DNA of 64,000 bases from Lacrimispora sp. BS-2 (GTDB lineage: Bacteria > Bacillota > Clostridia > Lachnospirales > Lachnospiraceae): assembly GCF_040207125.1 (NCBI RefSeq), contig NZ_CP157940.1:1116001-1180000 (forward strand), given 5' to 3'. Positions 2-63,103 of the stretch are shown here, one piece after another; within the stretch, counting starts at the first letter, position 1; every line of letters begins with the position of its first letter. A program made the translations under genes and the position numbers. Below the pieces are notes generated by a model, which worked only from the letters and a program-made list of their open reading frames with translations, did not search any database and was not told the DNA's origin.

Positions 2-3000
2 TGGAAAGGCGAATCAGGTGTCAGTGCCCTGGTGGAAGATCAGGGAAAAGAATATAAGGCAAATCTGCATATCAAGGGTAGTCAGGTTTTTGACTACTCT
101 TGTTCCTGTGCCCAGGGAAATTCCTACCTCGGCATGTGTCCTCACTGCAAAGTTCTGTTTGATGTGTATAAAGAACTGGAATCAAACTCTGGAAGGCCGG
201 TGACCACTTCCCAGCAGGCGAGAGCCATGATTCGGGAATATACCAATCGGGAGGTGTCCCGGATCATGAGCGAGGGAGAAGAGGAGCAGGTAAAGCTTTC
301 TGTATCTCTCCTGGTCAGCCGAAGGGAAGTGAAGCTGGAGTTTAAGCTGGGTAGGGACCGGCTTTACATGGTGAAGGATCTGGCTGCTTTTGCAAATGCG
401 GTGCAAAATGGAACCTATGTGGAATACGGCAAAAATCTGGCATTTCATCACACACCTTCTGCCTTTGCCAAAGAAAGCCGTCCCCTTCTGGAATTTGTAC
501 AGGAGATTGTGAATGCGTATTGTGAGCATTATGAACAGTTCCAGAAAAGTTCCTTTTCCACAAAGCCTGTTCTGCGGCTTTTAAATTTAAGCCGTGCAAA
601 CCGGGACCGTTTTTTTGGAATCATGATGGGAGAAACCCTGGAATTTGAGGATTACAAGGGCAAGAAGCGGCAGCTTGCGATCGTTGACCGAAATCCGGAC
701 TTAAAGGTTACGGTAAATCGCCAGGGCCGGGATGGGATATTGGTATCCATTGACCGGGAGCTTTTGGTCTTTGAAGGGGAGCACCGTTTATATCTTGCAG
801 ATATGAAACACTTATACTGCTGCGACCAGTCCTGCAGCGAGGCTCTTTCCGTATTTTTGGGGCAGATGATGGAAGGGTTTAAACCCTCCTATGAAACGGA
901 AATCAATAACAAGGATATGCCTCTTTTTTATGAACGGGTTTTAAAGAGAATTGCAGGTTACTGCACCATTGATTCCAAAGAAGTGGATCTGGAAGCTTAT
1001 AAGCCGGAAGAGCTGAAGGCAAGGTTTGATTTTGATTCCGACGGCCAGGGCGGGCTGATTTTAAAACCGACCCTTTCCTATGGGGATTATTCTTTCCAGC
1101 CGGTAGAGGACGAGCGCCTGCCCCGTACCGTGTGCCGGGATATACCGGGAGAGTTCCGCATCAGCCGTCTGATTACCCGGTATTTTAAATATAAGGAATA
1201 TGAATCAGAATATCCGGCTATTCGGGATGATGAGGACGCTGTATACCGGTTACTTACGTCAGGGATGAGTGAGTTCATGGCATTGGGAGAGGTTTATTTT
1301 TCTGAATCCTTTAAAAAGATAAAGATCCTGCCTCCTCCCAAGGTATCCATCGGGGTCAGGAGCGTGGGGAACTGGCTGGAACTGGACGTGGATACGGACG
1401 GGCTGACAGGAGAGGATTTAAGCAGGCTTTTGGAGGTGTACAGCCAGAAAAAGAAATATTACCGCTTAAAAAGCGGGGAATTTATAAGCCTTGATGACAA
1501 CGGTCTTATGACCGTTGCAAAGCTGATCGAGGGGTTGTCCGCTGACCCTGATATGTTAAACAAGTCTTTCCGCCTTCCCAAATACAGGGCTCTTTATCTG
1601 GACAGTATCCTGAAAGAGGGAAGCGGCATAACCCTTTACCGGGACCAGCTTTATAAAGCGGTGGTCCGGGGGATGAAGTCTGTGGAGGACAGTGATTTTG
1701 AGATTCCCCAGTCCCTCCGCCATGTGCTGAGAGGGTATCAAAAGACAGGATACCGCTGGCTTAAGACCCTGGACAGCTACGGCTTTGGTGGAATCCTGGC
1801 CGATGATATGGGCCTTGGAAAGACCCTTCAGGTCATGACCCTGCTCCTTGATGAAGCAGAAAAAAAGGAACATACCACCTCCCTTGTGGTTTGCCCGGCA
1901 TCCCTGGTATACAACTGGGAGAATGAATTTCATATCTTTGCCCCTTCTCTTAAAGTCGCGACAATCACCGGCCAGGCAGGAGAACGGGAAGAGCTGTTAA
2001 TGGACACGGATGAAAAAGATGTGCTGATTACTTCCTATGATTTATTAAAACGGGATATTGATCTTTATAAGGACAAGTCTTTCCGCTTTCAGATCATTGA
2101 TGAGGCCCAGTATATCAAAAATGCGTCCACCCAGAGTGCAAGAGCGGTAAAGAGCATTGATGCCGGGAACCGGTTCGCCTTGACGGGCACTCCTATTGAA
2201 AACCGTTTGTCAGAGCTGTGGAGCATTTTCGATTTTCTGATGCCGGGATTTCTCTTCACCTACCGGAAGTTTAAAAAGGAGTATGAACTGCCCATTGTCA
2301 GGGACCAGGAAAAAACGGCGCTGGAGAGCCTTCACCGCCTGATCGGCCCCTTTCTTTTAAGGCGGCTTAAGAAAGACGTTTTAAAAGAACTGCCGGATAA
2401 GCTGGAAACAATTGTTTATTCCGCTTTTGATAAGGAACAGAAGGAGCTGTATACGGCAAATGCATTCCGCTTAAAGCAGGAGCTTGAAAATCTGGCAGAC
2501 AAGTCTGGACGGGATAACATCCAGATCCTTGGGGCCCTTACCAGGCTCCGGCAGATCTGCTGCGATCCTCAGTTATGTTATGAGAATTACAAAGGGGGAT
2601 CAGCAAAGCTGGAAACCTGCATTGACCTGATCCGGAACGGGGTAGAGGGAGGACATAAGATCCTGCTCTTTTCCCAATTTACCTCCATGCTGGATGTAAT
2701 CGCAAAAAGGCTGAAAAAAGAAGCAATTCCTTACTACATGCTGACCGGAGCAACTCCCAAAGAGGATAGGCTTCATATGGTAAATTCTTTTAAAGATGAT
2801 GGGATCCCCCTGTTTCTTATTTCTTTAAAGGCAGGCGGAACAGGACTTAACCTGACTGCGGCAGACGTGGTCATACACTTTGATCCATGGTGGAATGTGG
2901 CGGCTCAGAACCAGGCCACGGACCGGGCCCACCGGATCGGCCAGGAAAAGCAGGTAAGTGTATTTAAGCTGATCACAAAGGGGACAATTGAGGAGAATAT

Positions 3001-3112
3001 TTTAAAGCTGCAGGAATCCAAGAAGGATTTGGCAGAACAGATTATTACAGAGGGAACCGTGTCCTTGAGTAATTTGACCAAAGAGGATCTGTTGGGGCTT
3101 TTGGATATTTAG
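2..3112 (+). CDS. SWIM zinc-finger / SNF2-family helicase (5' end outside window)
   Basis: Superfamily 2 DNA-dependent ATPase of the SNF2/Rad54 type, probably acting on DNA-protein complexes or stalled transcription. The frame is open to the left edge, so the start lies upstream; the GTG at 32 is only the first possible internal start. A SWIM-type zinc finger (CSC...CPHCK) lies at about nt 100-150. The helicase core follows: Walker A DDMGLGKT near 1801, DEAQ box near 2098, motif III LTGTPIENR near 2176, and motif VI ATDRAHRIGQ near 2917. Bacterial SWIM-SNF2 proteins are usually about 1,050-1,100 residues, so little is missing. The family is certain, the cellular role is not. Confidence 0.93.
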   Translation, partial: WKGESGVSALVEDQGKEYKANLHIKGSQVFDYSCSCAQGNSYLGMCPHCKVLFDVYKELESNSGRPVTTSQQARAMIREYTNREVSRIMSEGEEEQVKLSVSLLVSRREVKLEFKLGRDRLYMVKDLAAFANAVQNGTYVEYGKNLAFHHTPSAFAKESRPLLEFVQEIVNAYCEHYEQFQKSSFSTKPVLRLLNLSRANRDRFFGIMMGETLEFEDYKGKKRQLAIVDRNPDLKVTVNRQGRDGILVSIDRELLVFEGEHRLYLADMKHLYCCDQSCSEALSVFLGQMMEGFKPSYETEINNKDMPLFYERVLKRIAGYCTIDSKEVDLEAYKPEELKARFDFDSDGQGGLILKPTLSYGDYSFQPVEDERLPRTVCRDIPGEFRISRLITRYFKYKEYESEYPAIRDDEDAVYRLLTSGMSEFMALGEVYFSESFKKIKILPPPKVSIGVRSVGNWLELDVDTDGLTGEDLSRLLEVYSQKKKYYRLKSGEFISLDDNGLMTVAKLIEGLSADPDMLNKSFRLPKYRALYLDSILKEGSGITLYRDQLYKAVVRGMKSVEDSDFEIPQSLRHVLRGYQKTGYRWLKTLDSYGFGGILADDMGLGKTLQVMTLLLDEAEKKEHTTSLVVCPASLVYNWENEFHIFAPSLKVATITGQAGEREELLMDTDEKDVLITSYDLLKRDIDLYKDKSFRFQIIDEAQYIKNASTQSARAVKSIDAGNRFALTGTPIENRLSELWSIFDFLMPGFLFTYRKFKKEYELPIVRDQEKTALESLHRLIGPFLLRRLKKDVLKELPDKLETIVYSAFDKEQKELYTANAFRLKQELENLADKSGRDNIQILGALTRLRQICCDPQLCYENYKGGSAKLETCIDLIRNGVEGGHKILLFSQFTSMLDVIAKRLKKEAIPYYMLTGATPKEDRLHMVNSFKDDGIPLFLISLKAGGTGLNLTAADVVIHFDPWWNVAAQNQATDRAHRIGQEKQVSVFKLITKGTIEENILKLQESKKDLAEQIITEGTVSLSNLTKEDLLGLLDI

Positions 3113-3140
3113 AGAATTTAAATGAAAGGATGGATGAGTG

Positions 3141-3761
3141 ATGAAAGTACTAATGTTAAATGGAAGCCCTCATGAGAGAGGCTGTACCAACCGCGCCCTT
3201 CTTGAGGTGGAATGGGCTTTGAATGGGGAAGGCATTGAAACAGAAATTCTTCATGTCGGGAGCCAGTCTGTCCATGGCTGTATTGCCTGTCAGAAGTGTT
3301 CGGAAACCGGAAGGTGCGTATTTACTTATGACATGGTTAATCAGGTGCTGGATAAGATGGAAACAGCGGCAGGGCTGATTGTAGGTTCCCCGGTTCACTA
3401 TGCTTCTCCCAACGGCACAGTGCTTTCCTTCCTGGACCGCTTATTTTATGCGGGAAGAAACTTTGCTTATAAGCCGGGAGCAGCGGTTGTTTCCGCCCGC
3501 AGGGCAGGGACCACTGCTTCCCTCGATGTTTTGAACAAATATTTTACCATTGCCCAGATGCCGGTGGTTTCATCCTCTTACTGGAACATGGTTCACGGAT
3601 TTACGCCTCAGGAGGTGGAGCAGGATTTGGAGGGACTTCACACCATGAGAACTCTCGGAAAGAATATGGCATGGCTTTTAAAATGTCTGGAGGTGGGAAA
3701 GGCCGCAGGAATCAGCCTCCCTGCCTGGGAAGAAATTCCCAGAACAAATTTTATCCGCTAA
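3141..3761 (+). CDS. NADPH-dependent FMN reductase / flavodoxin-fold iron-sulfur flavoprotein family
   Basis: Small flavoprotein with an N-terminal flavodoxin fold: strand MKVLMLNGSP followed by the phosphate-binding region, then a CxxC cluster (GCIACQKC near residue 50) typical of the NAD(P)H-dependent FMN-reductase family in anaerobes, and the GSPVHYASPNG flavin-contact loop. The likely role is flavin or quinone reduction in the cytoplasm; the substrate is unknown. The ATG at 3141 is preferred over the in-frame GTG at 3138 because an AAAGGATGG Shine-Dalgarno sits about 9 nt upstream. It follows the helicase by 28 nt and may be co-transcribed with it. Confidence 0.85.
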   Translation: MKVLMLNGSPHERGCTNRALLEVEWALNGEGIETEILHVGSQSVHGCIACQKCSETGRCVFTYDMVNQVLDKMETAAGLIVGSPVHYASPNGTVLSFLDRLFYAGRNFAYKPGAAVVSARRAGTTASLDVLNKYFTIAQMPVVSSSYWNMVHGFTPQEVEQDLEGLHTMRTLGKNMAWLLKCLEVGKAAGISLPAWEEIPRTNFIR

Positions 3762-3799
3762 GGTGGAAAAAATCCCCTTTACTTTTTTTATTTGTAGTG

Positions 3800-3827
3800 T
3801 ATAATGAGATAGGCACTATATGTAGTG
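3800..3827 (+). promoter_or_regulatory. nrdDG promoter -10 with a candidate NrdR box
   Basis: A TATAAT hexamer at 3800-3805 is followed by CACTATATGTAGTG at 3814-3827, a near-perfect dyad like the NrdR box (consensus ACACwATATaTwGwGT). A half site, TGTAGTG, occurs at 3793-3799. NrdR is the zinc-finger/ATP-cone repressor that controls ribonucleotide reductase operons in most bacteria. The site lies directly before nrdD, where it would be expected. A clear full second box at the usual spacing is not visible. Confidence 0.65.
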
Positions 3828-3875
3828 ATTCAAATTTCAAAGGTACAAAATATAGAAGAGGTTAAGGTGACAGGG

Positions 3876-6005
3876 ATGATTAAAGTTCAAAAACGTGACG
3901 GCAGAATTGTGGAATATGACAGGGAAAAAATCATTACAGCCATTCGGAAAGCCAATGCAGAGGTGGAAGTTTCTGAACGGGCCGGGGAGGAAATGATTGA
4001 TGCAATCCTGGATCATGTAGAGAAAGAATACGATGGCGTGATCAGTGTGGAAGCCATTCAGGACATGATCGAGAGCAGTCTGGTAAATAAGAACAAATAT
4101 ACGCTTTCCAAAAAATACATCATTTACCGTTACCAGAGGGCCTTGCTTCGGAAGGCAAATACAACCGATGAGTCCATCTTAAAGCTGATTAAGAATGAGA
4201 ACAAGGAGCTGGCAGAGGAAAACTCCAACAAGAATACCATTCTGGCATCTACTCAGAGAGATTACATCGCAGGAGAGGTGTCCAGGGACTTAACCAGAAG
4301 GATGCTGCTTCCAGAGCGGATTTCTCTTGCCCATGACCAGGGAGCCATTCACTTCCATGATACAGATTATTTTGTTCAGCCGATTTTTAACTGCTGTCTG
4401 ATCAATATCGGCGATATGCTGGACAACGGCACCGTGATGAACGAAAAGATGATTGAGAGCCCTAAGAGCTTTCAGGTGGCGTGTACTGTCATGACCCAGA
4501 TCATTGCGGCTGTTGCCAGCAATCAGTATGGCGGCCAGTCCGTAGATATCCGGCATTTGGGAAAATATTTAAGGAAAAGCAATGATAAATTCCTTAAGCA
4601 GATCCGGGAAGAATTCGGGGATACGGTCACTCCTGAGATGGTGGAAAAAATGGCTGCCGTCCGTCTGAGAGATGAGCTGAAATCCGGTGTGCAGACCATT
4701 CAGTACCAGATCAACACCTTAATGACCACCAACGGACAGGCCCCATTTGTGACCCTGTTCTTATTCCTTGATGAAAACGACGAATACATAAAGGAAAATG
4801 CTCTGATCGTGGAAGAAGTCCTCCGCCAGAGGCTTGAGGGGATCAAGAACGAAGCAGGCGTTTATGTCACTCCTGCATTTCCTAAGCTGATCTATGTTTT
4901 AGATGAGAATAACTGCTTAAAGGGCGGAAGATATGATTACATAACAAAGCTGGCGGTGAAATGCTCCTCCAAGCGCATGTATCCGGATTATATTTCTGCT
5001 AAGAAAATGAGGGAAAATTACGAAGGGAATGTATTCAGCTGCATGGGCTGCCGGAGTTTCCTGTCTACATGGAAGGATGAGAACGGCAATTACAAGTTTG
5101 AGGGAAGGTTTAATCAGGGAGTGGTAAGCCTTAACCTGCCCCAGATCGGTATCCTTGCAAAGGGAGATGAAGACACCTTTTGGAAGATTTTGGATGAACG
5201 TCTGAATCTGTGCTATGAGGCCCTGATGTGCAGGCATAAGTCCCTGGAAGGCACACTTTCTGATGTAAGCCCGATTCACTGGCAGTATGGCGCTATTGCA
5301 AGGCTTAAAAAGGGAGAAAAGATCGACCCTCTGCTTCACAACGGCTATTCTACCATATCTCTGGGATACATCGGCCTTTATGAGATGACAAAGCTTATGA
5401 AGGGGGTAAGCCAGACAACTCCGGAAGGAGAGGAATTTGCTCTTCGTGTCATGAATCACATGCGGGAGGCTGTGGACCAGTGGAAAAACCAGACCGGCCT
5501 TGGCTTTGGCTTATACGGAACACCGGCAGAATCTCTCTGCTACCGGTTTGCCAAAATTGACAGGGAACGATTCGGAAACATACCTGATGTAACGGACAAG
5601 GGATATTATACCAACTCCTATCACGTTGATGTACGGGAGTCCATTGATGCGTTCAGCAAATTTTCCTTTGAAAGCCAGTTCCAGAAGATTTCCTCCGGCG
5701 GATCCATTTCTTATGTAGAGGTTCCAAACATGCAGAACAATCTGGAGGCAATGGAAGAAGTGGTGAAATTCATTTACGATAACATCCAGTATGCGGAGTT
5801 TAATACCAAATCAGACTATTGCCAGGAATGCGGTTTTGACGGTGAAATCATCATCAATGACGATATGGAATGGGAATGCCCTCAGTGCCATAACAAGGAT
5901 AAGAGGCGGATGAATGTGACCAGAAGAACCTGCGGCTATCTGGGAGAGAATTTCTGGAATACCGGAAAGACAAAAGAGATCAAATCCAGGGTCCTTCATC
6001 TGTAG
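3876..6005 (+). CDS. nrdD: anaerobic ribonucleoside-triphosphate reductase (class III, large subunit)
   Basis: Glycyl-radical enzyme that reduces ribonucleoside triphosphates to dNTPs without oxygen. Visible parts are an N-terminal ATP-cone (MIKVQKRDGR... to about residue 90), the catalytic barrel, a four-Cys zinc site near the C-terminus (CQEC and CPQC), and the glycyl-radical loop RTCGYLGENF close to the end. The ATG at 3876 has AAGGTGA 5 nt upstream; the longer GTG start at 3825 would sit inside the putative NrdR box and is less likely. Length about 709 residues, normal for the family. nrdG follows after 10 nt, forming an operon. Confidence 0.97.
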   Translation: MIKVQKRDGRIVEYDREKIITAIRKANAEVEVSERAGEEMIDAILDHVEKEYDGVISVEAIQDMIESSLVNKNKYTLSKKYIIYRYQRALLRKANTTDESILKLIKNENKELAEENSNKNTILASTQRDYIAGEVSRDLTRRMLLPERISLAHDQGAIHFHDTDYFVQPIFNCCLINIGDMLDNGTVMNEKMIESPKSFQVACTVMTQIIAAVASNQYGGQSVDIRHLGKYLRKSNDKFLKQIREEFGDTVTPEMVEKMAAVRLRDELKSGVQTIQYQINTLMTTNGQAPFVTLFLFLDENDEYIKENALIVEEVLRQRLEGIKNEAGVYVTPAFPKLIYVLDENNCLKGGRYDYITKLAVKCSSKRMYPDYISAKKMRENYEGNVFSCMGCRSFLSTWKDENGNYKFEGRFNQGVVSLNLPQIGILAKGDEDTFWKILDERLNLCYEALMCRHKSLEGTLSDVSPIHWQYGAIARLKKGEKIDPLLHNGYSTISLGYIGLYEMTKLMKGVSQTTPEGEEFALRVMNHMREAVDQWKNQTGLGFGLYGTPAESLCYRFAKIDRERFGNIPDVTDKGYYTNSYHVDVRESIDAFSKFSFESQFQKISSGGSISYVEVPNMQNNLEAMEEVVKFIYDNIQYAEFNTKSDYCQECGFDGEIIINDDMEWECPQCHNKDKRRMNVTRRTCGYLGENFWNTGKTKEIKSRVLHL

Positions 6006-28773: not shown

Positions 28774-29060
28774 GATCAAAAGGCCAGCTAGCAGATTACC
28801 ATCGGTCATAAGTGCTATTTTAAGCCCGGCTGGTTGCTGCAAGATCCGGGGGAAGCAAAAGTAAAGAGATGGATGGTACTGCGTTTACACACCTTGTCTA
28901 CCTGTCCCATATAATGTACTGTAATGCGATAAAAAAGAAGTTAAATGAATCTATTCTTTCCTATTGCTAAATAGGTAAGAAGAAATACATACAAATATAA
29001 ATTTAAAATGGCTTAATAGAGTCTATAAACCGGCGGTCAATAACGCTTTTAGCAGCATTC

Positions 29061-29088
29061 ACAACTTTTCTACTGGTCCCATATAATA
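29061..29088 (+). promoter_or_regulatory. SigK-like sporulation promoter of the first Cys-rich peptide gene
   Basis: AC at 29061-29062, a 17-bp gap, then CATATAATA at 29080-29088, matching the SigK pattern AC-N17-CATAnnnTA. The second copy of this gene has the same arrangement. Confidence 0.6.
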
Positions 29089-29117
29089 AAATATAAAATA
29101 ATAAAAGAGGTGTAAAT

Positions 29118-29312
29118 ATGGGTTGTTTTTGGGGCGGCTGTAATAATAACTGCAGGCGTGGTTGTAACAATAATTGCGGCTGTGATAATAGATTTGATTG
29201 CGAAGAAGAGAAAGATAGATGTGAAAAGGAAAGAAGAGAAGCTTACTGCGCAGGTTTTCGTGATGGCTGTAACAGCGCTTCCCGCTGGGGCAACGATGAT
29301 GATTGCTGTTGA
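29118..29312 (+). CDS. small Cys/Asn-rich protein with REAYCAGFRDGC motif (copy 1)
   Basis: 64 residues with 12 Cys. The N-terminal part is CxxxC-spaced and Asn/Gly-rich (MGCFWGGCNNNCRRGCNNNC); a charged linker leads to REAYCAGFRDGCN at residues 40-52 and a terminal CC. A second protein in this window (58587-58772) has the same 13 residues at the same positions. GAGGTG precedes the ATG. No signal peptide. With the SigK-like promoter this suggests a late mother-cell product such as a spore coat or crust peptide; metal binding is another possibility. Family not recognised. Confidence 0.8.
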   Translation: MGCFWGGCNNNCRRGCNNNCGCDNRFDCEEEKDRCEKERREAYCAGFRDGCNSASRWGNDDDCC

Positions 29313-31243: not shown

Positions 31244-31289
31244 GTTATCCATAATCACATGTGCCAAATATTTTCTGGCAATAAAAAAC

Positions 31290-31361
31290 TCCCCGAGTAG
31301 GACTTGAACCTACGACCCAACGGTTAACAGCCGTTTGCTCTACCGACTGAGCTATCGAGGA
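31290..31361 (-). tRNA. tRNA-Asn (GTT)
   Basis: 72-nt cloverleaf on the minus strand with TCCTCGA/TCGGGGA acceptor pairing, GGTTCAAGTCC T-arm and anticodon loop CTGTTAA. Confidence 0.95.
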
Positions 31362-31426
31362 ATACATGGTTTATTATACCCGAAAAGATAAATATGTCAA
31401 TAGGGAAAATATAGATATTAAAAAAG

Positions 31427-31511
31427 TGCGGGAGATGGGACTTGAACCCACACGTCTATACAGACACAAGATCCTTAGTCTTGCCTGTCTGCCAATTCCA
31501 GCACTCCCGCA
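31427..31511 (-). tRNA. tRNA-Leu (AAG)
   Basis: 85-nt class II tRNA with acceptor TGCGGGA/TCCCGCA, anticodon loop CTAAGGA (anticodon AAG) and a long variable arm. A near copy lies on the opposite strand at 31804. Confidence 0.92.
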
Positions 31512-31606
31512 CAACGAAATTTATCTTAACACTTAATGGCAAAATTGTCAATGTTTTTTGAAAAATATACACAAAAAAAATATTTGAAAAATTTGGAGAA
31601 ATGTTG

Positions 31607-31635
31607 TTGACAGATAGGAGCTTGTATACTATAAT
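31607..31635 (+). promoter_or_regulatory. promoter of the tRNA-Leu genes
   Basis: TTGACA (31607-31612), 17 bp, TATAAT (31630-31635), 33 nt before the tRNA. Confidence 0.75.
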
Positions 31636-31668
31636 AACTATTGTTGTTGCGAGAGATAACAACGAAAT

Positions 31669-31751
31669 GCAGAAGTGGCGGAATTGGCAGACGCGCACGG
31701 TTCAGGTCCGTGTGGTAGCAATACCTTGAGGGTTCAAGTCCCTTCTTCTGC
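31669..31751 (+). tRNA. tRNA-Leu (CAG), copy 1
   Basis: 83-nt class II tRNA: acceptor GCAGAAG/CTTCTGC, anticodon loop TTCAGGT, long variable arm, GGTTCAAGTCC T-arm. Identical in sequence to the copy at 34990. Confidence 0.95.
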
Positions 31752-31803
31752 ATGAAGCTATACAGATGGTCATAGCTGTGTAGTTTTCATTTTATATATG
31801 ACA

Positions 31804-31888
31804 TGCGGGAGTGCTGGAATTGGCAGACAGGCAAGACTAAGGATCTTGTGGTTGTATGATCGTGTGGGTTCAAGTCCCATCTCCCGCA
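31804..31888 (+). tRNA. tRNA-Leu (AAG), second copy
   Basis: 85 nt, same body as the minus-strand copy at 31427-31511, differing in the variable arm (GTTGTATGATC against TGTCTGTATAGAC). Followed by a terminator. Confidence 0.93.
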
Positions 31889-31911
31889 TTATTATCTAAA
31901 CGTGATTGGAA

Positions 31912-31939
31912 TGTCCTGTGGGAAACCACAGGACATTTT
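31912..31939 (+). terminator. terminator after tRNA-Leu genes
   Basis: TGTCCTGTGG, GAAA loop, CCACAGGACA, then TTTT. The following stretch 31940-32358 contains no gene I can support. Confidence 0.85.
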
Positions 31940-32358
31940 CAGTATTTCAAGGGTTTTAAAGAGCTTTTGCTTGTTAAAAAGAAAAATGATTTTATGGCTG
32001 TTATTTTCGGAGGAGAGGCTTTATGCTCTCCATTTTTTATGGACAAAAAGCAGCAGACTGTGAATCAAAGCATCGTGGCTATTTATACCCGTTACATTCC
32101 TGTCTTTTCATTTATCCTTTTCTTGACTCTATTCTTGATTTTTTCCGCCGAATCGCGCATCAATTTTCAATTACCATAACACCGTTTTTTGCCCCATTTG
32201 GATTTTTTCAGGCACTTTAAACCTGGTTTTCTGAGTGAACGCTCTTTTTCATGTACGGATAGAAAGTTGATTAAGTCTTAAAATCAGGAATGTGCACATA
32301 AAATGAATTAATTATTATCCTAAAATATAGTGTAATTCGTTGAAAGGGATAAAACGGC

Positions 32359-33741
32359 ATGAAGGATGGGAAGTCGAAAAGAGGAGCAGTAGAAAAGGCG
32401 ATTATTGTTATTGCTTCAATGGTGCTGGTTTACTTACTTATTTCCTTATATTTTACGAATCATTTCTTCACTAACACTGTAATTAACGGAGTAAATGTTT
32501 CCTTAAAGTCTCTGAAAGATGTAGACCAGAGTTTACAAGATCACATAAGAAACTATAAGCTGCAATTGGTAGAAAGAAATGGGGAAATCGAAGAACTATG
32601 GGGGAAGGAGATTGGCCTGGAATACAATGACAAAAACAATATTTCAGAAATTCTCCGCCAGCAAGATTCCCTCAAATGGATCATTTTATTATTTAGAAAT
32701 CATGAAGAATATACCGGAGGGGTATTTTTTTATAATGAAACAGCTCTGGAAGATAAAATAAATAATTTACATTGCATTAATAACCTCAGAATTGAGCCGC
32801 GAAATGTGGATTTTAAGTATTCTGGCGGCTCATATGAACTGGTAGAAGAAGTATATGGGAATATTGTCCGGAAAGACCGATTATACATAGCCATCCGGTC
32901 GGGAATTTTGATGGGAGAGACTACCTTGGATTTGAATGAAAAACATTGTTACGAAAATCCCCAATACACTTTAATTTCTGACAAAGCGTTTGAAACCAAG
33001 AAACTCCTGGATAAGTACGTAACTACCAGTGTTACCTATAGCTTCGACAACTTAAAAGAACAATTAGACGGAAATATGATACACAAATGGCTCAGCGTAG
33101 ATGATGATCTGGATGTGAAGTTAGACCGGCCCGAGGTAAAGAAATATGTGAAAGAATTAGGGGAAAAATATGATACGGTCGGAATTGCAAGAAATTTTAA
33201 GACCTCCACAGGGAAAATTATAGAGGTACAGGGCGGGCTTTATGGCTGGAAAATTGATCAGAAGGCTGAAACGGAAGCACTGCTGGAAAACATAAAAAAT
33301 GGTCAGATACTTATCCGGGAACCAGTATATGCACAAAGGGCATTGTTCAGGTCTGAAAATGAAATAGGCAATACCTATGTGGAAATCAATATAACCAAAC
33401 AGCATTTATGGTTTTATAAAGATGGAAAATTGATCATCCATGGTCCTGTGGTAACCGGAAATCCCAATACTGGAAATTCAACTGTGACCGGGACCAATAT
33501 GCTTAATTATAAACAAAAAGATGCGGTCTTATCAGGCCCCGGTTATCAGGCCCCGGTGACATACTGGATGCCCTTTTATGGGAATATAGGGGTTCATGAC
33601 GCCAGGTGGAGGCGTTCCTTCGGAGGTGAGATCTATAAAAGGAATGGAAGCCATGGCTGCGTAAATGCCCCATTTTATTTGGCAAAAATAATTTTTGAGC
33701 AAATCGGTGAAGGAACTCCGTTTATCAGCTATAAAGAGTAG
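32359..33741 (+). CDS. L,D-transpeptidase (YkuD) with peptidoglycan-binding domain
   Basis: 460 residues. An N-terminal membrane anchor (about residues 11-31) is followed by an extracellular region with the PG_binding_4 pattern (NTVINGVNVSLKSLKDVDQS near residue 37) and then the YkuD domain from about residue 335 (EINITKQHLWFYKDGKLI). The catalytic motif is intact: NIGVHDARW and SHGCVNAP with the nucleophilic Cys. It should make 3-3 cross-links in peptidoglycan outside the membrane. AAAGGGA lies before the ATG. Monocistronic. Confidence 0.93.
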   Translation: MKDGKSKRGAVEKAIIVIASMVLVYLLISLYFTNHFFTNTVINGVNVSLKSLKDVDQSLQDHIRNYKLQLVERNGEIEELWGKEIGLEYNDKNNISEILRQQDSLKWIILLFRNHEEYTGGVFFYNETALEDKINNLHCINNLRIEPRNVDFKYSGGSYELVEEVYGNIVRKDRLYIAIRSGILMGETTLDLNEKHCYENPQYTLISDKAFETKKLLDKYVTTSVTYSFDNLKEQLDGNMIHKWLSVDDDLDVKLDRPEVKKYVKELGEKYDTVGIARNFKTSTGKIIEVQGGLYGWKIDQKAETEALLENIKNGQILIREPVYAQRALFRSENEIGNTYVEINITKQHLWFYKDGKLIIHGPVVTGNPNTGNSTVTGTNMLNYKQKDAVLSGPGYQAPVTYWMPFYGNIGVHDARWRRSFGGEIYKRNGSHGCVNAPFYLAKIIFEQIGEGTPFISYKE

Positions 33742-33818
33742 GAAGCCAAAGCGGCTTCAATTAAAACCAAAGGGCCTGGTCCTTAGAAAGAAAACTAATT
33801 AATTATGGAAAACCGGTA

Positions 33819-33859
33819 TAGCAGAAAACCGCTTGCAGGTTGCAAACGGTTTCTTGCTG
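33819..33859. terminator. bidirectional terminator between ldt and merR-type genes
   Basis: AGCAGAAAACCGCTTGCA and TTGCAAACGGTTTCTTGCT arms (with two mismatches) between converging genes. Confidence 0.75.
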
Positions 33860-33868
33860 TTATAATCA

Positions 33869-34687
33869 TTATTTCTTTTTAACAGGATAGCAAACCTCGG
33901 TCACTAGTTCGTCAGGGTTCCGGGTTTGAGCCGGGCTGACATGATAGATGCAGAACATAGCTCCGTTAAATTCATAGCCATTATCATTTACCCAATTTGC
34001 CACCGCACGATTCACAGCGGTGAGCTGATCGTAGCTGCCTTTGTAAGTTGCCGAGGCAATTTCCACCACAGGCATTGTTTTAAATACAACGTGTTCTGTG
34101 TCCTGATAGCTTCCTTTTACTGTGAATTGGATTTCCACATCCATGTCGCTGTCTTTATACCCCTCGTCATGGAAGATTGCAAGGCTGCAGCAATTGTCGG
34201 CGGGCTGCAGCTGCTGTGGAGCTGTTTCTGTCATCATTAGGTTCCACAAGATTCCTTCCTGATCGTAGGCGGGAATCACCTGTCGTACACTGGCAACATA
34301 GCGCTCTGGCAGATTCTTTAATGTAACATTATAATTCATAGCAGTATCATCCTTTCTCAGCCGTTTGATGGCTGTGTCAAGGAGCAGCAAACGCCGGCCT
34401 GTTTCTTCGGCTTCCGCAAAAACCTCAGCCTGCTTTACGGCCAGAAAATCAGCCAGTGCCTGGGGATTATCGTAATTCTTCAGGATTTCTCCAATTGTGG
34501 CGAGGCCAAATCCCATATCCTTCAGGGAGCTGATTCTGCCTGCAACCGGCAGCTGATCCTCCCCATAGTAACGGTAGCCGGTAAAGCTATCTGTGGTTTT
34601 CGGCACTAGCAGGCCGATATCATCGTAATGCCGCAGCATCCGTATACTGATCCTTGACAGTTTTGAAAAATCACCTATTTTCAGCAT
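33869..34687 (-). CDS. MerR-family regulator with GyrI-like effector domain
   Basis: 272 residues. The N-terminal MerR helix-turn-helix (MLKIGDFSKLSRISIRMLRH...YDDIGLL) runs to about residue 70, a coiled-coil linker follows, and residues 120-272 form a GyrI/BltR-like small-molecule-binding domain ending in DELVTEVCYPVKK. Proteins of this build sense drugs or other hydrophobic compounds and activate efflux genes. It stands alone, with its own promoter showing the long spacer typical of MerR control, so it probably regulates itself. Confidence 0.9.
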   Translation of the reverse strand: MLKIGDFSKLSRISIRMLRHYDDIGLLVPKTTDSFTGYRYYGEDQLPVAGRISSLKDMGFGLATIGEILKNYDNPQALADFLAVKQAEVFAEAEETGRRLLLLDTAIKRLRKDDTAMNYNVTLKNLPERYVASVRQVIPAYDQEGILWNLMMTETAPQQLQPADNCCSLAIFHDEGYKDSDMDVEIQFTVKGSYQDTEHVVFKTMPVVEIASATYKGSYDQLTAVNRAVANWVNDNGYEFNGAMFCIYHVSPAQTRNPDELVTEVCYPVKKK

Positions 34688-34728
34688 TTTTATTACCTCA
34701 CATATATGTGTTTTTTGAGCTCAACTAT

Positions 34729-34759
34729 AGTATAGAGTATATCACAATGTGAGAGTCAA
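34729..34759 (-). promoter_or_regulatory. MerR-type promoter with 19-bp spacer and internal dyad
   Basis: On the minus strand TTGACT, a 19-bp spacer, then TATACT. The spacer holds CTCACATTGTGAT, a dyad placed as in MerR operators. Overlong spacers are the hallmark of promoters activated by MerR proteins. Confidence 0.75.
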
Positions 34760-34989
34760 TAGGGATTTGGATTTTTATTTTTGGCACCAGGGATGGATAC
34801 ATTTTGAGGAAAAGCATTGCCAATATTATACTTTACAATATTATATTGTTGAATCGATAGAGGCATTATTTGTACCAATTACTGCTTTAAAGAAGAAAAG
34901 TATAAAAAAGAAAAAAAGTACTTGATTATTTGCAAAAAGTATAGTACTATAATTGAGCGAATTGATTTACCAATTTGCACAATTGAAAA

Positions 34990-35072
34990 GCAGAAGTGGC
35001 GGAATTGGCAGACGCGCACGGTTCAGGTCCGTGTGGTAGCAATACCTTGAGGGTTCAAGTCCCTTCTTCTGC
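34990..35072 (+). tRNA. tRNA-Leu (CAG), copy 2
   Basis: 83-nt tRNA identical to 31669-31751; -10-like TACTAT/TATAAT sequences lie about 40 nt upstream. Confidence 0.95.
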
Positions 35073-35085
35073 ATGTGATGCTTAA

Positions 35086-58459: not shown

Positions 58460-58529
58460 GAAATACGGGGTTGTATCTGAGCTTTTTTCAAACAGCTTTT
58501 TACGAAAAAGTTATTTATATATGTGATTC

Positions 58530-58557
58530 ACATCTTGTCTGGTTAGCCCATACAATA
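58530..58557 (+). promoter_or_regulatory. SigK-like sporulation promoter of the second Cys-rich peptide gene
   Basis: AC at 58530-58531, 17 bp, CATACAATA at 58549-58557. The whole stretch from ATTCACA to the start codon lines up with that of the first copy at 29.06 kb. Confidence 0.6.
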
Positions 58558-58586
58558 AGGTATAATTATAAGATGAGGTGTATGAT

Positions 58587-58772
58587 ATGGGATGTTCTAA
58601 TTCTTGGTCTTGCGGCTGCAACCGCAACAATTGCTGTGACAATAAGTGCTGTGATAATAGATGCTGTAACAAAAGTAACGTTGATCCTTGTGCAGAAGCA
58701 AAAAGAGAGGCATATTGTGCCGGTTTCAGAGATGGATGCAATGATCCATGCTGCAGAGGTACTAAAAGATAG
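58587..58772 (+). CDS. small Cys/Asn-rich protein with REAYCAGFRDGC motif (copy 2)
   Basis: 61 residues with 12 Cys: MGCSNSWSCGCNRNNCCDNK, then CCDNRCCNKS, and REAYCAGFRDGCN at residues 40-52, the same position as in the protein at 29118. The tail is DPCCRGTKR. The N-terminal regions differ in sequence but share the Cys/Asn-rich style. GAGGTG lies 6 nt before the ATG; the GTG at 58578 would overlap that site. Longer frames covering this region on both strands are overlaps. Likely a sporulation-stage coat or crust peptide. Confidence 0.8.
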   Translation: MGCSNSWSCGCNRNNCCDNKCCDNRCCNKSNVDPCAEAKREAYCAGFRDGCNDPCCRGTKR

Positions 58773-58792: not shown

Positions 58793-58824
58793 AGCGGGTA
58801 TCCGGTATTCCGGACCCGCTTTTT
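58793..58824 (+). terminator. terminator after Cys-rich peptide copy 2
   Basis: AGCGGGTATCCGG, TATT loop, CCGGACCCGCT, then TTTT. Confidence 0.88.
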
Positions 58825-59520: not shown

Positions 59521-61197
59521 TTATAAGAGTGTGGAAAGGCGATCTAATACACGGTTTACATCCAGCTGCCCAAATCCCCATATATTGTTGGGATAGCTGT
59601 AGGCAGGGTTACGCAGTGCTCCTCTTACAATCATGCGGTTTACTTGTTCGCCTGTAATATAAGTGAAGTTACCCATGCCCTGGGACCATTCAAAAATGAT
59701 AGCAGATGCACCTGCTGCAATGGCAGCAGAAGCGCCGGTGCCTGTTAAGGATCCATATTGGTTTTCAGGAAGCGCACAGGGGATCTGATAGCCGGGGGCC
59801 GCAATATCAGGTTTAACAAGGCCGCTTCTTGTGAAACCTCTTCCTGATTCATCCAGGATATTGGAGGTCAGCTGATTATAAGCGGCAACGGTCAAGGTAC
59901 GTCTGGAATTCCCGGGAGAGGTTATGGTTATATCCGGATTGGAATTTAAAAAAAAGGTCCTGGTTGATATCAAGTCTCCGCTGGGCAGCCAGGAATTAAA
60001 AGAAAAAGGTTCATTTTCCGTGCTTTGGACACGGAAATACCAGATTCCGGGAAGGGGGTTCTCAAACCGTAATAAAATCAGCTGGTCGCCGCTTTCCCGT
60101 TCAAAGACCATGTTATTTACCCAGACGATGCTTGGGCTGCTCTGAAAAACAAACTTTTGGCATTCGCTGAATGTGGGATTAATAAATGGGATTGTTTCCC
60201 GGTTTGGTGCAGAAATTTCAATAGAAAGCCTTCCGGGTATATGTGCCCATAGCTCCATGAAGAACTGCTTGTCATTTCCTGAAATATTTAACTGGAAATC
60301 ATTAAAGTAGGGTGCGGAAATGGTTTTGTTAAAATAGTGCCTTCCGTTGTTTGCCTCATTTCCTGCGGATATGGAAACACCCAGATCAGGCTGCTGAACC
60401 AGGGTCTCTAAGTAGGTGCTCAAAATACCCCTGCCATCATGATTGCCCTGACTGCTGCCCAGAGCAATACATATGATTATAGGACGTTTCAATCGCTGGC
60501 CTATGGAAACTAAGTAACGTACTCCAAGAACTATATCTGATTCCTGGAAACATAGTTTGTCTTCTGAAACAGAAAATATCATTTTAAGATTCGGCTTAGC
60601 TTCTTTTAATTTTACGACAGCCAGCTCTGCATTTGGAACAACGCCGCTAAAGGAATTGTTATTGCCGGAAGATCCTGCAATGATGCTTGCAATGGCTGTG
60701 CCGTGGCCAACTTCATCGGTTGAAGGAACAACGGAAAAAGGATTTTCATTGTGCAGTGCGTCATTTATGGAAGCTTTTGTATATTCCGTACCAAAGGTAA
60801 AATCCTTGGGAGGTGTTCCCGCTTGCTGTGTCTGATCCCATATGGAAAAAATCCGGGTTGTTTTATCCTTATTCATGAACGCCGGATGCCGGTAATCAAT
60901 CCCGGTGTCCACGATGCCAATAACCATTCCCTGTCCATAAAAGTTATAATCCATTTGGGCCGCGGCCACATCCATCTCTGGTGCAGCAGGGGCAACCGTA
61001 GAAGTAAGGGTATAAAGGGTTGGAAAAATGTGGTAAGGCGTTTGGCCGAGATCACATGGCTGCATATTATTTTTGGATACATGCAGCAGGGAAAACCTGT
61101 CATTGAGCAATGTAATATCATCGCCCACACCGTAGGAAGGAACTAATAAATTACTTATAATCAAGTCGTAATAATTATTATCCAGTATTTTTTCCAT
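59521..61197 (-). CDS. subtilase-family Csp-like pseudoprotease (catalytic Ser replaced), copy A
   Basis: 558 residues, the usual size of clostridial Csp germination proteins. It starts MEKILDNNYYDLIISNLLVP, the Csp N-terminus. Catalytic Asp97 (IVDTGID) and His165 (VGHGTA) are kept. The Ser motif GTSxAA reads T485-G-T-G488-A-S, so Gly488 is at the nucleophile position. The same Ser-to-Gly loss is known in C. difficile CspC, a non-catalytic germination regulator. Divergent from a sister gene with which it shares promoter sequence. Predicted to act in the spore during germinant sensing; inference from family. Confidence 0.85.
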   Translation of the reverse strand: MEKILDNNYYDLIISNLLVPSYGVGDDITLLNDRFSLLHVSKNNMQPCDLGQTPYHIFPTLYTLTSTVAPAAPEMDVAAAQMDYNFYGQGMVIGIVDTGIDYRHPAFMNKDKTTRIFSIWDQTQQAGTPPKDFTFGTEYTKASINDALHNENPFSVVPSTDEVGHGTAIASIIAGSSGNNNSFSGVVPNAELAVVKLKEAKPNLKMIFSVSEDKLCFQESDIVLGVRYLVSIGQRLKRPIIICIALGSSQGNHDGRGILSTYLETLVQQPDLGVSISAGNEANNGRHYFNKTISAPYFNDFQLNISGNDKQFFMELWAHIPGRLSIEISAPNRETIPFINPTFSECQKFVFQSSPSIVWVNNMVFERESGDQLILLRFENPLPGIWYFRVQSTENEPFSFNSWLPSGDLISTRTFFLNSNPDITITSPGNSRRTLTVAAYNQLTSNILDESGRGFTRSGLVKPDIAAPGYQIPCALPENQYGSLTGTGASAAIAAGASAIIFEWSQGMGNFTYITGEQVNRMIVRGALRNPAYSYPNNIWGFGQLDVNRVLDRLSTLL

Positions 61198-61429: not shown

Positions 61430-63103
61430 ATGCTAAAAATATTGGATGATAATTATTATGATTTGATCATCAGTAATGTTATGATTCCCACATATGATAC
61501 CGGAGATAATATAACTCCCATGCATTTAAGGAATTCTTTGGCTCATATCCCTGTTGATTCAGCGAATCCCTGTGACTTGGGAAAGTATCCTTATAATGCA
61601 TTTCCTTCCCTATTTACCCTCAGCTCCACTGTCAGCCTTGAAAAATCCGGTATCGGAACGGTACAGAGAAACCCTTATTTAGCTTTATTTGGGCGGGGAG
61701 TGATTGTTGCGGTCATAGATACCGGGATTGATTACCAGCATCAGGCATTTTTATATAATGACGGAACGACCCGTATTCTTTCCATATGGGATCAGACCAT
61801 ACAAGAGGGCGCTCCGCCGGAGGGATTTACGTACGGCACCGAATATACCAGGGAGCATATTAATGTTGCACTTAAATCGGAAAATCCCTTATCCATAGTT
61901 CCTTCTGTGGACACCAATGGCCACGGAACTGCAATCGCAAGTGTGGCAGCGGGCAAACCAAGCCTGGTGCAGTCATTCAGCGGTGTTGTCCCGGAATCCG
62001 ATCTGCTGGTTGTAAAGCTGAAGCCGGCAAAGAACAATCTGAAAAAAATATTTTTTACTCCTGAAAACGCTATATGCTATCAGGAGTCGGATGTGATCAT
62101 TGGGATCAGTTATGTGACTACCGTTGCCCGAAGGCTGAACCGGCCCGTTGCCATATGCCTTGCCTTGGGAACAAACCAGTCAAGCCATGACGGGCGGGGA
62201 GCAACCAGTTTTTTTACCAATTACCTGGTACAGCAGCCCCATAACGGGATAACCATAAGTGCAGGCAATGAAGCGAACAAACGCAGACATTACTTTAACA
62301 GCACCACTGCGGAACCCTTCGTAAATAATTTTGAATTAAGAGTTGGAGAAAATGACAAACTGTTTTCCGTTGAGCTATGGCCGTTTGCCCCGGCAAGGCT
62401 GGCCATAGAGATAATCGCTCCAAACAGAGAGACAACAGGGCAGGTTTTTCCGGCTCTGGGGGAATGCAGAAGATTTGCCTTCGTATTTAATTCAAGCGTT
62501 GTGTGGGTCAATAATTATATTTTTGAAGAGGAGAGCGGAGATCAGCTGGTATTGATGCGTTTTCAGGACCCCCTTCCCGGAATCTGGAACATTCGGGTTC
62601 AAAACCTTGATAATGGACCATTTTCTTTTCATACCTGGCTGCCGTCAGGAGACCAGATCACAGAAGAAACCTTTTTTATAAATGCCAATCCGGACACTAC
62701 CGTAACTTCTCCTGGAAATTCAACCAATCCTCTGACGGTTACCGCTTATAATCAGTATAATGACACGGTACTGCCTGAATCAGGAAGAGGATATACAAGA
62801 ACCGGATTCGTAAAGCCGGACATAGCAGCACCGGGTTATGAGATTACCTGTGCGGTTCCGGGAAACCAGTATGGCAGTATAACAGGAAGCGGATCCGCGG
62901 CAGCCCAGGCGGCGGGTGTTGTTGCAATGGTTTTTGAATGGGCCGTTTCAAGGGGAAATTATACCAATATGACCGGAAACGATGTGAACCGTCTGCTTAT
63001 ACGCGGAGCGCGGCGCAGTACCACGTATACTTATCCCAACAATATCTGGGGATATGGACAGATTGATATTAACTCGCTGTTTGAAAGGCTTACGAATATT
63101 TAA
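61430..63103 (+). CDS. subtilase-family Csp-like pseudoprotease, copy B
   Basis: 557 residues, similar along its whole length to copy A (MLKILDDNYYDLIISNVMIP; GHGTAIAS; SIWDQT). Asp97 and His165 are kept and fall at the same numbers. The nucleophile region reads T485-G-S-G488-S-A, again Gly for Ser. GGGAGG precedes the ATG. No classical prodomain cleavage is expected without activity. Function as a pseudoprotease partner in germination is inferred from the Csp family. Confidence 0.85.
   Translation: MLKILDDNYYDLIISNVMIPTYDTGDNITPMHLRNSLAHIPVDSANPCDLGKYPYNAFPSLFTLSSTVSLEKSGIGTVQRNPYLALFGRGVIVAVIDTGIDYQHQAFLYNDGTTRILSIWDQTIQEGAPPEGFTYGTEYTREHINVALKSENPLSIVPSVDTNGHGTAIASVAAGKPSLVQSFSGVVPESDLLVVKLKPAKNNLKKIFFTPENAICYQESDVIIGISYVTTVARRLNRPVAICLALGTNQSSHDGRGATSFFTNYLVQQPHNGITISAGNEANKRRHYFNSTTAEPFVNNFELRVGENDKLFSVELWPFAPARLAIEIIAPNRETTGQVFPALGECRRFAFVFNSSVVWVNNYIFEEESGDQLVLMRFQDPLPGIWNIRVQNLDNGPFSFHTWLPSGDQITEETFFINANPDTTVTSPGNSTNPLTVTAYNQYNDTVLPESGRGYTRTGFVKPDIAAPGYEITCAVPGNQYGSITGSGSAAAQAAGVVAMVFEWAVSRGNYTNMTGNDVNRLLIRGARRSTTYTYPNNIWGYGQIDINSLFERLTNI

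What the first reader, a model, noticed from the sequence alone, without database searches (positions are those of the whole stretch)
29061..29312. Paired Cys/Asn-rich micro-proteins with an invariant core and shared SigK-like promoters
The genes at 29118-29312 and 58587-58772 are 29 kb apart, yet both proteins have REAYCAGFRDGCN at residues 40-52 and 12 Cys each, while their N-terminal halves differ. Their upstream regions match without gaps over about 60 bases (ATTCACA, CCCATA[T/C]AATAA, GAGGTG) and both fit AC-N17-CATAnnnTA, the SigK pattern. This suggests a family of late mother-cell peptides, perhaps disulfide-linked coat or crust components or metal binders, that I do not recognise from any named family.
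Basis: partly seen in the sequence, partly recalled or inferred. Interest (0 to 1): 0.85.

Follow-up and report, generated by a model that had tools for sequence, protein, structure and literature searches.

The report
Cysteine-rich spore-coat-like peptide family
Two tiny cysteine-packed proteins belong to an unnamed bacterial family, found almost only in one genus, whose genes share one very conserved late-sporulation-type promoter, so they are probably disulfide-linked building blocks of the spore surface: a new family of a known kind.

Summary
In detail: both genes are there, share REAYCAGFRDGCN at residues 40-52 and fit AC-N17-CATAnnnTA. Corrections: 12 and 14 Cys, not 12 each; GAGGTG is offset by one base.

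Profile hits occur in 24 of 25 genomes of the genus (Lacrimispora) and in two genomes of one other genus, with nothing else convincing in 397 family genomes or 391 class genomes (one short class hit not inspected). The shared promoter, TTCACA-N-CTTGTCT-N8-CATATAATA, is longer than a SigK consensus: 69 exact pattern matches in 25 genus genomes, 0 reversed-pattern controls. Of 65 distinct sites, 50 are followed directly by a Cys-rich ORF; random places give 164 of 5000.

Spore links beyond the promoter: some members are fused to a YmaF domain (YmaF-like CD3620 of C. difficile is SigK-dependent and spore-associated), and members adjoin LysM/GH18 genes (8 places) or Csp-like proteases (10 places). 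Best reading: late mother-cell, disulfide-linked spore-envelope proteins, working like CdeC/CdeM or CotY/CotZ but without detected homology to a named family. No expression or localisation data exist. Noticed: this genome's sigK is split by an element carrying [NiFe]-hydrogenase genes.

The parts
28888..28916 (+). extra copy of the promoter (CACACCTTGTCTACCTGTCCCATATAATG), no ORF of its own; probable relic of a lost neighbouring family gene, or a second promoter
   Evidence: 1 mismatch to the pattern; the same extra copy lies upstream of the gene-1 orthologues of G007 and G014, and in G005 and G013 a site ~540-600 bp upstream heads a second-type family gene, eroded in G005
29058..29088 (+). 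promoter of gene 1: TTCACA (AC = SigK-type -35), box CTTTTCT, -10 CATATAATA at 29080-29088
29107..29112 (+). ribosome-binding site GAGGTG of gene 1
   Evidence: read directly
29118..29312 (+). gene 1: 64-aa Cys/Asn-rich protein, 12 Cys, core REAYCAGFRDGCN at residues 40-52
58527..58557 (+). promoter of gene 2: TTCACA, box CTTGTCT, -10 CATACAATA at 58549-58557
58575..58580 (+). ribosome-binding site GAGGTG of gene 2
   Evidence: read directly
58587..58772 (+). gene 2: 61-aa Cys/Asn-rich protein, 14 Cys, same core
58794..58824 (+). hairpin followed by T5 after gene 2, terminator-like
   Evidence: by eye only
59521..61197 (-). neighbour: S8 peptidase resembling germination proteins CspC/CspBA (below the curated cut-offs)
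61430..63103 (+). neighbour: second Csp-like S8 peptidase (below the curated cut-offs)

Best explanation
The two genes are members of a multigene family of very small, cysteine-rich structural proteins made late in the mother cell from one shared, SigK-type promoter and built into the outer spore layers (coat, crust or exosporium). Each protein has a conserved segment, C-x3-[RK][RK]xAY[CW]xGFRDGC, predicted (weakly) to be helical, which I take to be the docking or self-assembly element, flanked by fast-changing Cys/Asn/Arg-rich and His/Asp-rich arms that cross-link by disulfides (or bind metal) once the mother cell lyses. Shown: the family, the core, the promoter, its near-exclusive link to Cys-rich genes in this genus, the YmaF fusion and the neighbours. 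Inferred: SigK as the sigma factor, spore-surface location, disulfide cross-linking, the docking role of the core.
For: Promoter: in 30 distinct members collected by the protein core (not by promoter), AC stands 17 nt before [C/T]ATA in 30 of 30, and 14 further positions of TTCACA-N-CTTGTCT / CATATAATA are at least 93% conserved (many are close relatives). -35 AC marks SigK and ATA marks SigE in C. difficile (PMC3789822, passages). The exact extended pattern occurs 69 times in 25 genus genomes with 0 reversed-pattern matches; 50 of 65 distinct sites head a Cys-rich ORF against 164 of 5000 random places in the same loci (all 69 sites are held, 4 are duplicates). Outside the genus the pattern is at chance level: 7 other genomes of 200, with reversed-pattern matches in 6 of 200. 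Function: two promoter-linked members of G005 (L141, L142) have the same kind of Cys-rich arm; the one scanned carries a YmaF domain (PF12788, E 6.6e-38). YmaF-like CD3620 is SigK-dependent and in the spore proteome (PMC3789822), and a YmaF homologue is reported as a spore-surface ligand (PMC13339774). LysM/GH18 genes lie beside members at 8 places and Csp-like proteases at 10 places. The genome has a sigK match, split as in C. difficile and B. subtilis. Composition is extreme: 17.9% Cys, 13.3% Asn, 2.3% I+L+V over 65 sequences selected for at least 8% Cys. Purifying selection.
Against: No expression, proteomic or localisation data. The plain pattern AC-N16-18-CATAnnnT[AG] is common by chance (20 in the window's two strands, 8 for a scrambled control), dpaA, a SigK gene elsewhere, shows no such site just upstream here, and yabG was not found. 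So SigK rests on consensus alone. SigE shares the -10. 15 of 65 sites do not head a called Cys-rich gene. The neighbour counts have no genome-wide base rate. 6 of the 10 Csp-like places are one orthologous locus. The family is missing from nearly all other spore formers sampled, so it is not part of the general spore. Structure prediction failed (pLDDT 47).
Confidence: 0.72

Rival explanations
1. Late-sporulation metal-binding or redox-buffering peptides (metallothionein-like) of the mother cell or spore, rather than structural cross-linked material.
For: Cys pairs plus His and Asp runs in the C-terminal arms of many members; no named family; anaerobe whose spores must survive oxygen.
Against: The most conserved part is the Y-x2-G-F-x2-G segment, not the Cys spacing: Cys number and spacing vary freely between members, one profile-matching promoter-linked member (L026/L093) has 5 Cys in 62 aa, unlike fixed metal clusters. 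No metal site could be modelled.
Confidence: 0.13
2. Precursors of modified or antimicrobial peptides (RiPP or bacteriocin type).
For: Small Cys-rich ORFs with a conserved segment and a variable part.
Against: The genes are scattered; the neighbours that were identified next to the two window genes are a xanthine permease, xanthine-dehydrogenase-like subunits, MscL and Csp-like proteases, no modifying enzyme or exporter. No plasmid match at E 0.01. The variable and conserved parts are not leader-core arranged.
Confidence: 0.05
3. Genus-specific genes under a SigE or other mother-cell promoter with a role in the mother cell (not in the spore), the similarity to coat proteins being compositional only.
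For: SigE and SigK share the -10 (PMC3789822, passages); the conserved CTTGTCT box is not part of either consensus as far as I know (recalled).
Against: -35 AC fits SigK; YmaF fusion; LysM/GH18 neighbours.
Confidence: 0.08

Closest known systems
CdeC and CdeM, cysteine-rich exosporium proteins of Clostridioides difficile (PMC6101409, passages)
   Same: Cys content 9% and 8.7%, low complexity with Asn- and Cys-rich repeats, SigK-dependent, lineage-restricted, no Pfam domain; CdeM has RREA repeats and an NGNNGGNNNNC repeat that recall the RREA and N/C-rich parts here.
   Different: 161-405 aa against mostly 61-131 aa here; the authors report neither in Lachnospiraceae; no CdeC or CdeM sequence was compared here, so homology is untested; exosporium location is shown there, not here.
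CotY / CotZ / ExsY of Bacillus spore crust and exosporium
   Same: Cys-rich proteins that self-assemble in the outermost spore layer (as cited in PMC6101409, passages).
   Different: No Pfam match of the window proteins to any family at E 1; far smaller; different composition.
YmaF family (PF12788), e.g. CD3620 of C. difficile
   Same: A YmaF domain is fused to a Cys-rich arm under the same promoter in L142, and by its sequence also in L141; CD3620 is SigK-dependent and spore-associated (PMC3789822, passages).
   Different: The two window genes have no YmaF domain.

Membership tests
Cys-rich late spore-surface proteins (functional kind: CdeC, CdeM, CotY, CotZ, ExsY) | Cys content at least about 8% | tested here: met
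   12 of 64 and 14 of 61 residues
Cys-rich late spore-surface proteins (functional kind: CdeC, CdeM, CotY, CotZ, ExsY) | SigK-type promoter (AC, spacer of 16-18, CATAnnnTA) | tested here: met
   by consensus only
Cys-rich late spore-surface proteins (functional kind: CdeC, CdeM, CotY, CotZ, ExsY) | found in the spore coat or exosporium | not testable with these tools
   no proteomic data for this genus found (no paper)
CotY/CotZ/ExsY or any other Pfam or NCBIfam family | profile match | tested here: not met
   no family at E up to 1 for either protein in Pfam or NCBIfam
CdeC / CdeM | sequence homology | not tested
   no CdeC or CdeM sequence was fetched; the authors report neither in Lachnospiraceae (PMC6101409, passages)
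SigK regulon | loss of expression in a sigK mutant | not testable with these tools
   no expression data
SpoIIID-controlled promoters | SpoIIID box, C. difficile consensus KRTAACARK (PMC5025042, passages) | tested here: not met
   best scores 6 or 7 of 9 in 30 promoters, no better than shuffled segments; the B. subtilis consensus letters were not available in the text and were not tested

The most novel reading that the evidence does not exclude
The conserved CTTGTCT box between the SigK-type -35 and -10 is a new promoter determinant that sets apart a very late mother-cell class whose products are nearly all Cys-rich 'glue' peptides. In this lineage it would do the job that GerE does in Bacillus, and each peptide plugs into the coat through one shared YxxGFRDGC helix while its arms evolve freely. 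In the two g71 promoters inspected with a 16-nt spacer, the TTGTC part keeps 9 nt to the -10, which hints at a protein or sigma contact fixed to the -10 side; a third g71 promoter (L080) lacks the box at that place.
Probability: 0.3. Interest if true: 0.72.

Novelty: new member of a known kind. Interest (0 to 1): 0.48.

Why it matters
Spore coats evolve fast and most of their small Cys-rich parts are unrecognised because they are short, lack Pfam domains and are called hypothetical. Here one promoter pattern finds such genes across a whole genus with few misses, so a set of candidate coat glue proteins, and the sigma-factor logic behind them, becomes directly testable in Lachnospiraceae, where spore-surface proteins are little studied (my impression; some searches found only the C. 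difficile paper among CC-licensed papers).

Tried and rejected
SpoIIID as reader of the CTTGTCT box: tested with the C. difficile consensus and not supported. Positive control for the plain SigK pattern: dpaA shows no exact site just upstream in this genome, yabG was not found, so the control did not help. A comparison of AC-N17-CATAnnnTA sites with and without the box failed through an off-by-one in my filter (the 'without box' list still holds boxed sites) and is not used. Structure: AlphaFold2 on 28 aligned sequences gave pLDDT 46.9 and only a helix at residues 25-48; no fold search was made on so poor a model. PDB profile search: 0 matches at E 1. Mobile-element origin: no plasmid match; one viral-contig match sits in a contig with a transposase-like and a beta-galactosidase-like ORF (my reading, no family scan), so it looks like host DNA. 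Profile hits judged chance after inspection: G073, G244, G266; the class hit in G809 (30 positions, E 6e-5) was not inspected. Automatic calls of a 20-aa ORF with 2 Cys as 'Cys-rich' at 4 sites were dropped from the count by a 30-aa limit. Loci of weak hits beyond those matching a core regular expression were not inspected one by one for promoters.

Full report
What is there. Gene 1 (29118-29312) encodes 64 aa with 12 Cys; gene 2 (58587-58772) encodes 61 aa with 14 Cys; both have REAYCAGFRDGCN at residues 40-52. Neither matches Pfam or NCBIfam at E up to 1. Six orthologues of gene 1 show mean pS 0.27 against pN 0.065, so the reading frame is under selection. The genome is one contig of 4,489,992 bases. 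The genus is Lacrimispora: locus L007, a record titled Lacrimispora celerecrescens 152B with a 66,991-base contig, corresponds to contig C42, also 66,991 bases, of genome G007, listed as same genus.

The family. A search with gene 1 finds 3 matches in its own genome: itself, gene 2 and a third at C1:1894100-1894315. A profile of 18 members adds two more of a second type at 841 kb and 3,789 kb, whose core reads [AV]YWRGFKDGC. A protein search gave 36 relatives at E up to 1 from 967 candidates, none with a Pfam domain; source names are mostly 'hypothetical protein' from Lacrimispora, Clostridium sp. or Lachnoclostridium, and one is called Leu/Phe-tRNA-protein transferase, surely a misnomer. A 31-sequence profile matches in 24 of 25 genus genomes at E up to 0.01 (G017 has none). 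In 397 family genomes 7 matched; on inspection G000, G016 and two genomes of genus g71 (G094, G408) are real and G073, G244, G266 look like chance. In 391 class genomes 3 matched at E up to 0.001: G000, G016 and a 30-position match in G809 that I did not inspect. No plasmid match. One IMG/VR contig holds a member in what looks like host DNA.

The promoter. Thirty distinct upstream regions of members collected by the protein core were aligned on the promoter: TTCACA is at 97-100% at every position, AC precedes [C/T]ATA by 17 nt in 30 of 30, the CTTGTCT box is at 93-100% except its G (73%), and CATATAATA is at 93-100%. These 30 include close relatives, so they are not 30 independent witnesses. 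The pattern CACANNTTNTCTN8CATANNNTA has 7 sites in the own genome at up to 1 mismatch and 0 for the reversed pattern: three core-family genes, two second-type genes, a 31-aa peptide MCCFNRCCRRNCRCNFCNNCCFCNNRCNWWW and the gene-less copy at window 28888-28916. Over 25 genus genomes it has 69 exact sites in 23 genomes, reversed control 0. Over 200 genomes one per genus it is found in 8, own included, with reversed matches in 6, that is, chance outside the genus.

What the promoter drives. All 69 genus sites are held; 65 are distinct over their first 75 bases. With one fixed gene-calling rule, 50 of 65 are followed by an ORF of at least 30 aa and at least 8% Cys; the same rule at random places in these loci gives 164 of 5000 (the loci are enriched for such genes, so this control is conservative). 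The 15 others: 2 extra promoters upstream of gene-1 orthologues, 1 second-type copy broken by an early stop, 3 short MCCFNRRF ORFs, 1 without a recognisable gene (L094), and 8 of a class with a leader of about 120 nt and, in at least 5 of them, a 22-aa ORF LNCFFESCWNNCNGNCSGDDCS. Sub-types include the MGCFWGGC (gene 1), GCSNSW (gene 2) and MCCFFGGC forms, a second type with ECECKPKR repeats of varying number and a Glu/Tyr tail, 30-31-aa peptides, and Cys-rich arms of 100 residues or so fused to YmaF.

Relic promoter. The copy at 28888-28916 lacks an ORF. In G007 and G014 the same gene-less copy stands 152-178 bp upstream of the gene-1 promoter; in G013 a site about 600 bp upstream heads a second-type gene, and in G005 one about 540 bp upstream heads a broken one. 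I read the window copy as the remains of a lost second-type neighbour.

Links to the spore that do not rest on the promoter letters. (a) YmaF fusion: L142:367-966 has PF12788 at E 6.6e-38; L141's protein has the same C-terminal sequence by eye. C. difficile CD3620, 'similar to YmaF', falls to 0.04 in a sigK mutant and is spore-associated (PMC3789822, passages); a YmaF homologue is a reported spore-surface ligand (PMC13339774, passages). (b) Neighbours by tblastn at E 1e-8 over the loci held: LysM/GH18 proteins beside members at 8 places in 5 genomes (G000 twice, G005 twice, G008, G010, G014, G024 once each: 6 genomes in all), Csp-like S8 proteases at 10 places in 8 genomes (G000, G005, G007, G008, G013, G014, G018, G020 once each and G001 twice: 9 genomes in all), 6 of these 10 being the gene-2 orthologous locus. 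The exact tallies are therefore 8 places in 6 genomes and 10 places in 9 genomes. There is no genome-wide base rate. In the window, gene 2 is followed by MscL and two Csp-like genes below the curated cut-offs. Gene 1's neighbour is the xanthine permease pbuX, which says nothing about spores. (c) sigK is present in two pieces.

Against. The plain pattern AC-N16-18-CATAnnnT[AG] occurs 20 times on the window's two strands against 8 for a scrambled form, so it discriminates little by itself; the own dpaA, SigK-dependent in C. difficile (PMC3789822), has no exact site just upstream, and yabG was not found. SigK is thus a consensus-based call. In genus g71, L073 and L076 have AC-N16-CATATAATA with TTGTC 9 nt before the -10 as in Lacrimispora, while L080 does not show the box there.

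How it most likely works. Inferred chain: SigK made in the mother cell after engulfment transcribes these genes strongly; the peptides, which have no signal sequence by eye and almost no aliphatic residues (2.3% I+L+V, in a set chosen for Cys), stay in the mother-cell cytosol, dock on the growing coat through the conserved YxxGFRDGC segment (the only part with a predicted helix, at low confidence) and are locked by disulfides through freely varying Cys-rich arms. The repeat-number variation of the second type and the His and Asp tails fit fast coat evolution.

Known or new. CdeC (405 aa, 9% Cys) and CdeM (161 aa, 8.7% Cys, with RREA and N/C-rich repeats) of C. difficile are the closest in kind; their authors found neither in Lachnospiraceae (PMC6101409, passages). 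I did not compare their sequences. Searches of CC-licensed papers for Cys-rich spore proteins in Lachnospiraceae, Lacrimispora or Clostridium saccharolyticum gave only that paper. So: new family, known kind. The part that could be new in principle is the extended promoter box.

Noticed in passing
G000:C1:1272000-1279000 (L151), outside the window: sigK is in two pieces about 5.5 kb apart, separated by an element that carries a large serine recombinase (L151:4392-6131) and [NiFe]-hydrogenase genes: maturation protease HycI-like (691-1176), cytochrome-b5-like protein (1330-1893), small subunit (1830-2804), large subunit (2807-4183). A sigK-intervening element with hydrogenase cargo is unknown to me; one paper search for the combination gave nothing. 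Worth its own study: which relatives have it, and whether excision links hydrogenase loss to the mother cell.
   Followed up: partly
28888-28916: Gene-less copy of the family promoter upstream of gene 1, kept in two other genomes.
   Followed up: yes
L142:367-966 and L141:2807-3475: Cys-rich arms (CDRDRC repeats) fused to a YmaF domain (for L142).
   Followed up: partly
L057:238-1248: DUF4489 protein (PF14879, E 2.8e-59) divergent from a second-type family gene, perhaps another spore-surface protein.
   Followed up: no
L141:2252-2602, L128:337-687: Conserved 117-aa protein of unknown family beside second-type genes in G005 and G007.
   Followed up: no
L154:373-511 (G031, another genus): Three tandem copies, 55 bp apart, of a segment matching the promoter pattern near a contig end; no Cys-rich gene seen downstream.
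   Followed up: partly
31288-35073: Five tRNA genes on both strands within 4 kb, four of them tRNA-Leu.
   Followed up: no
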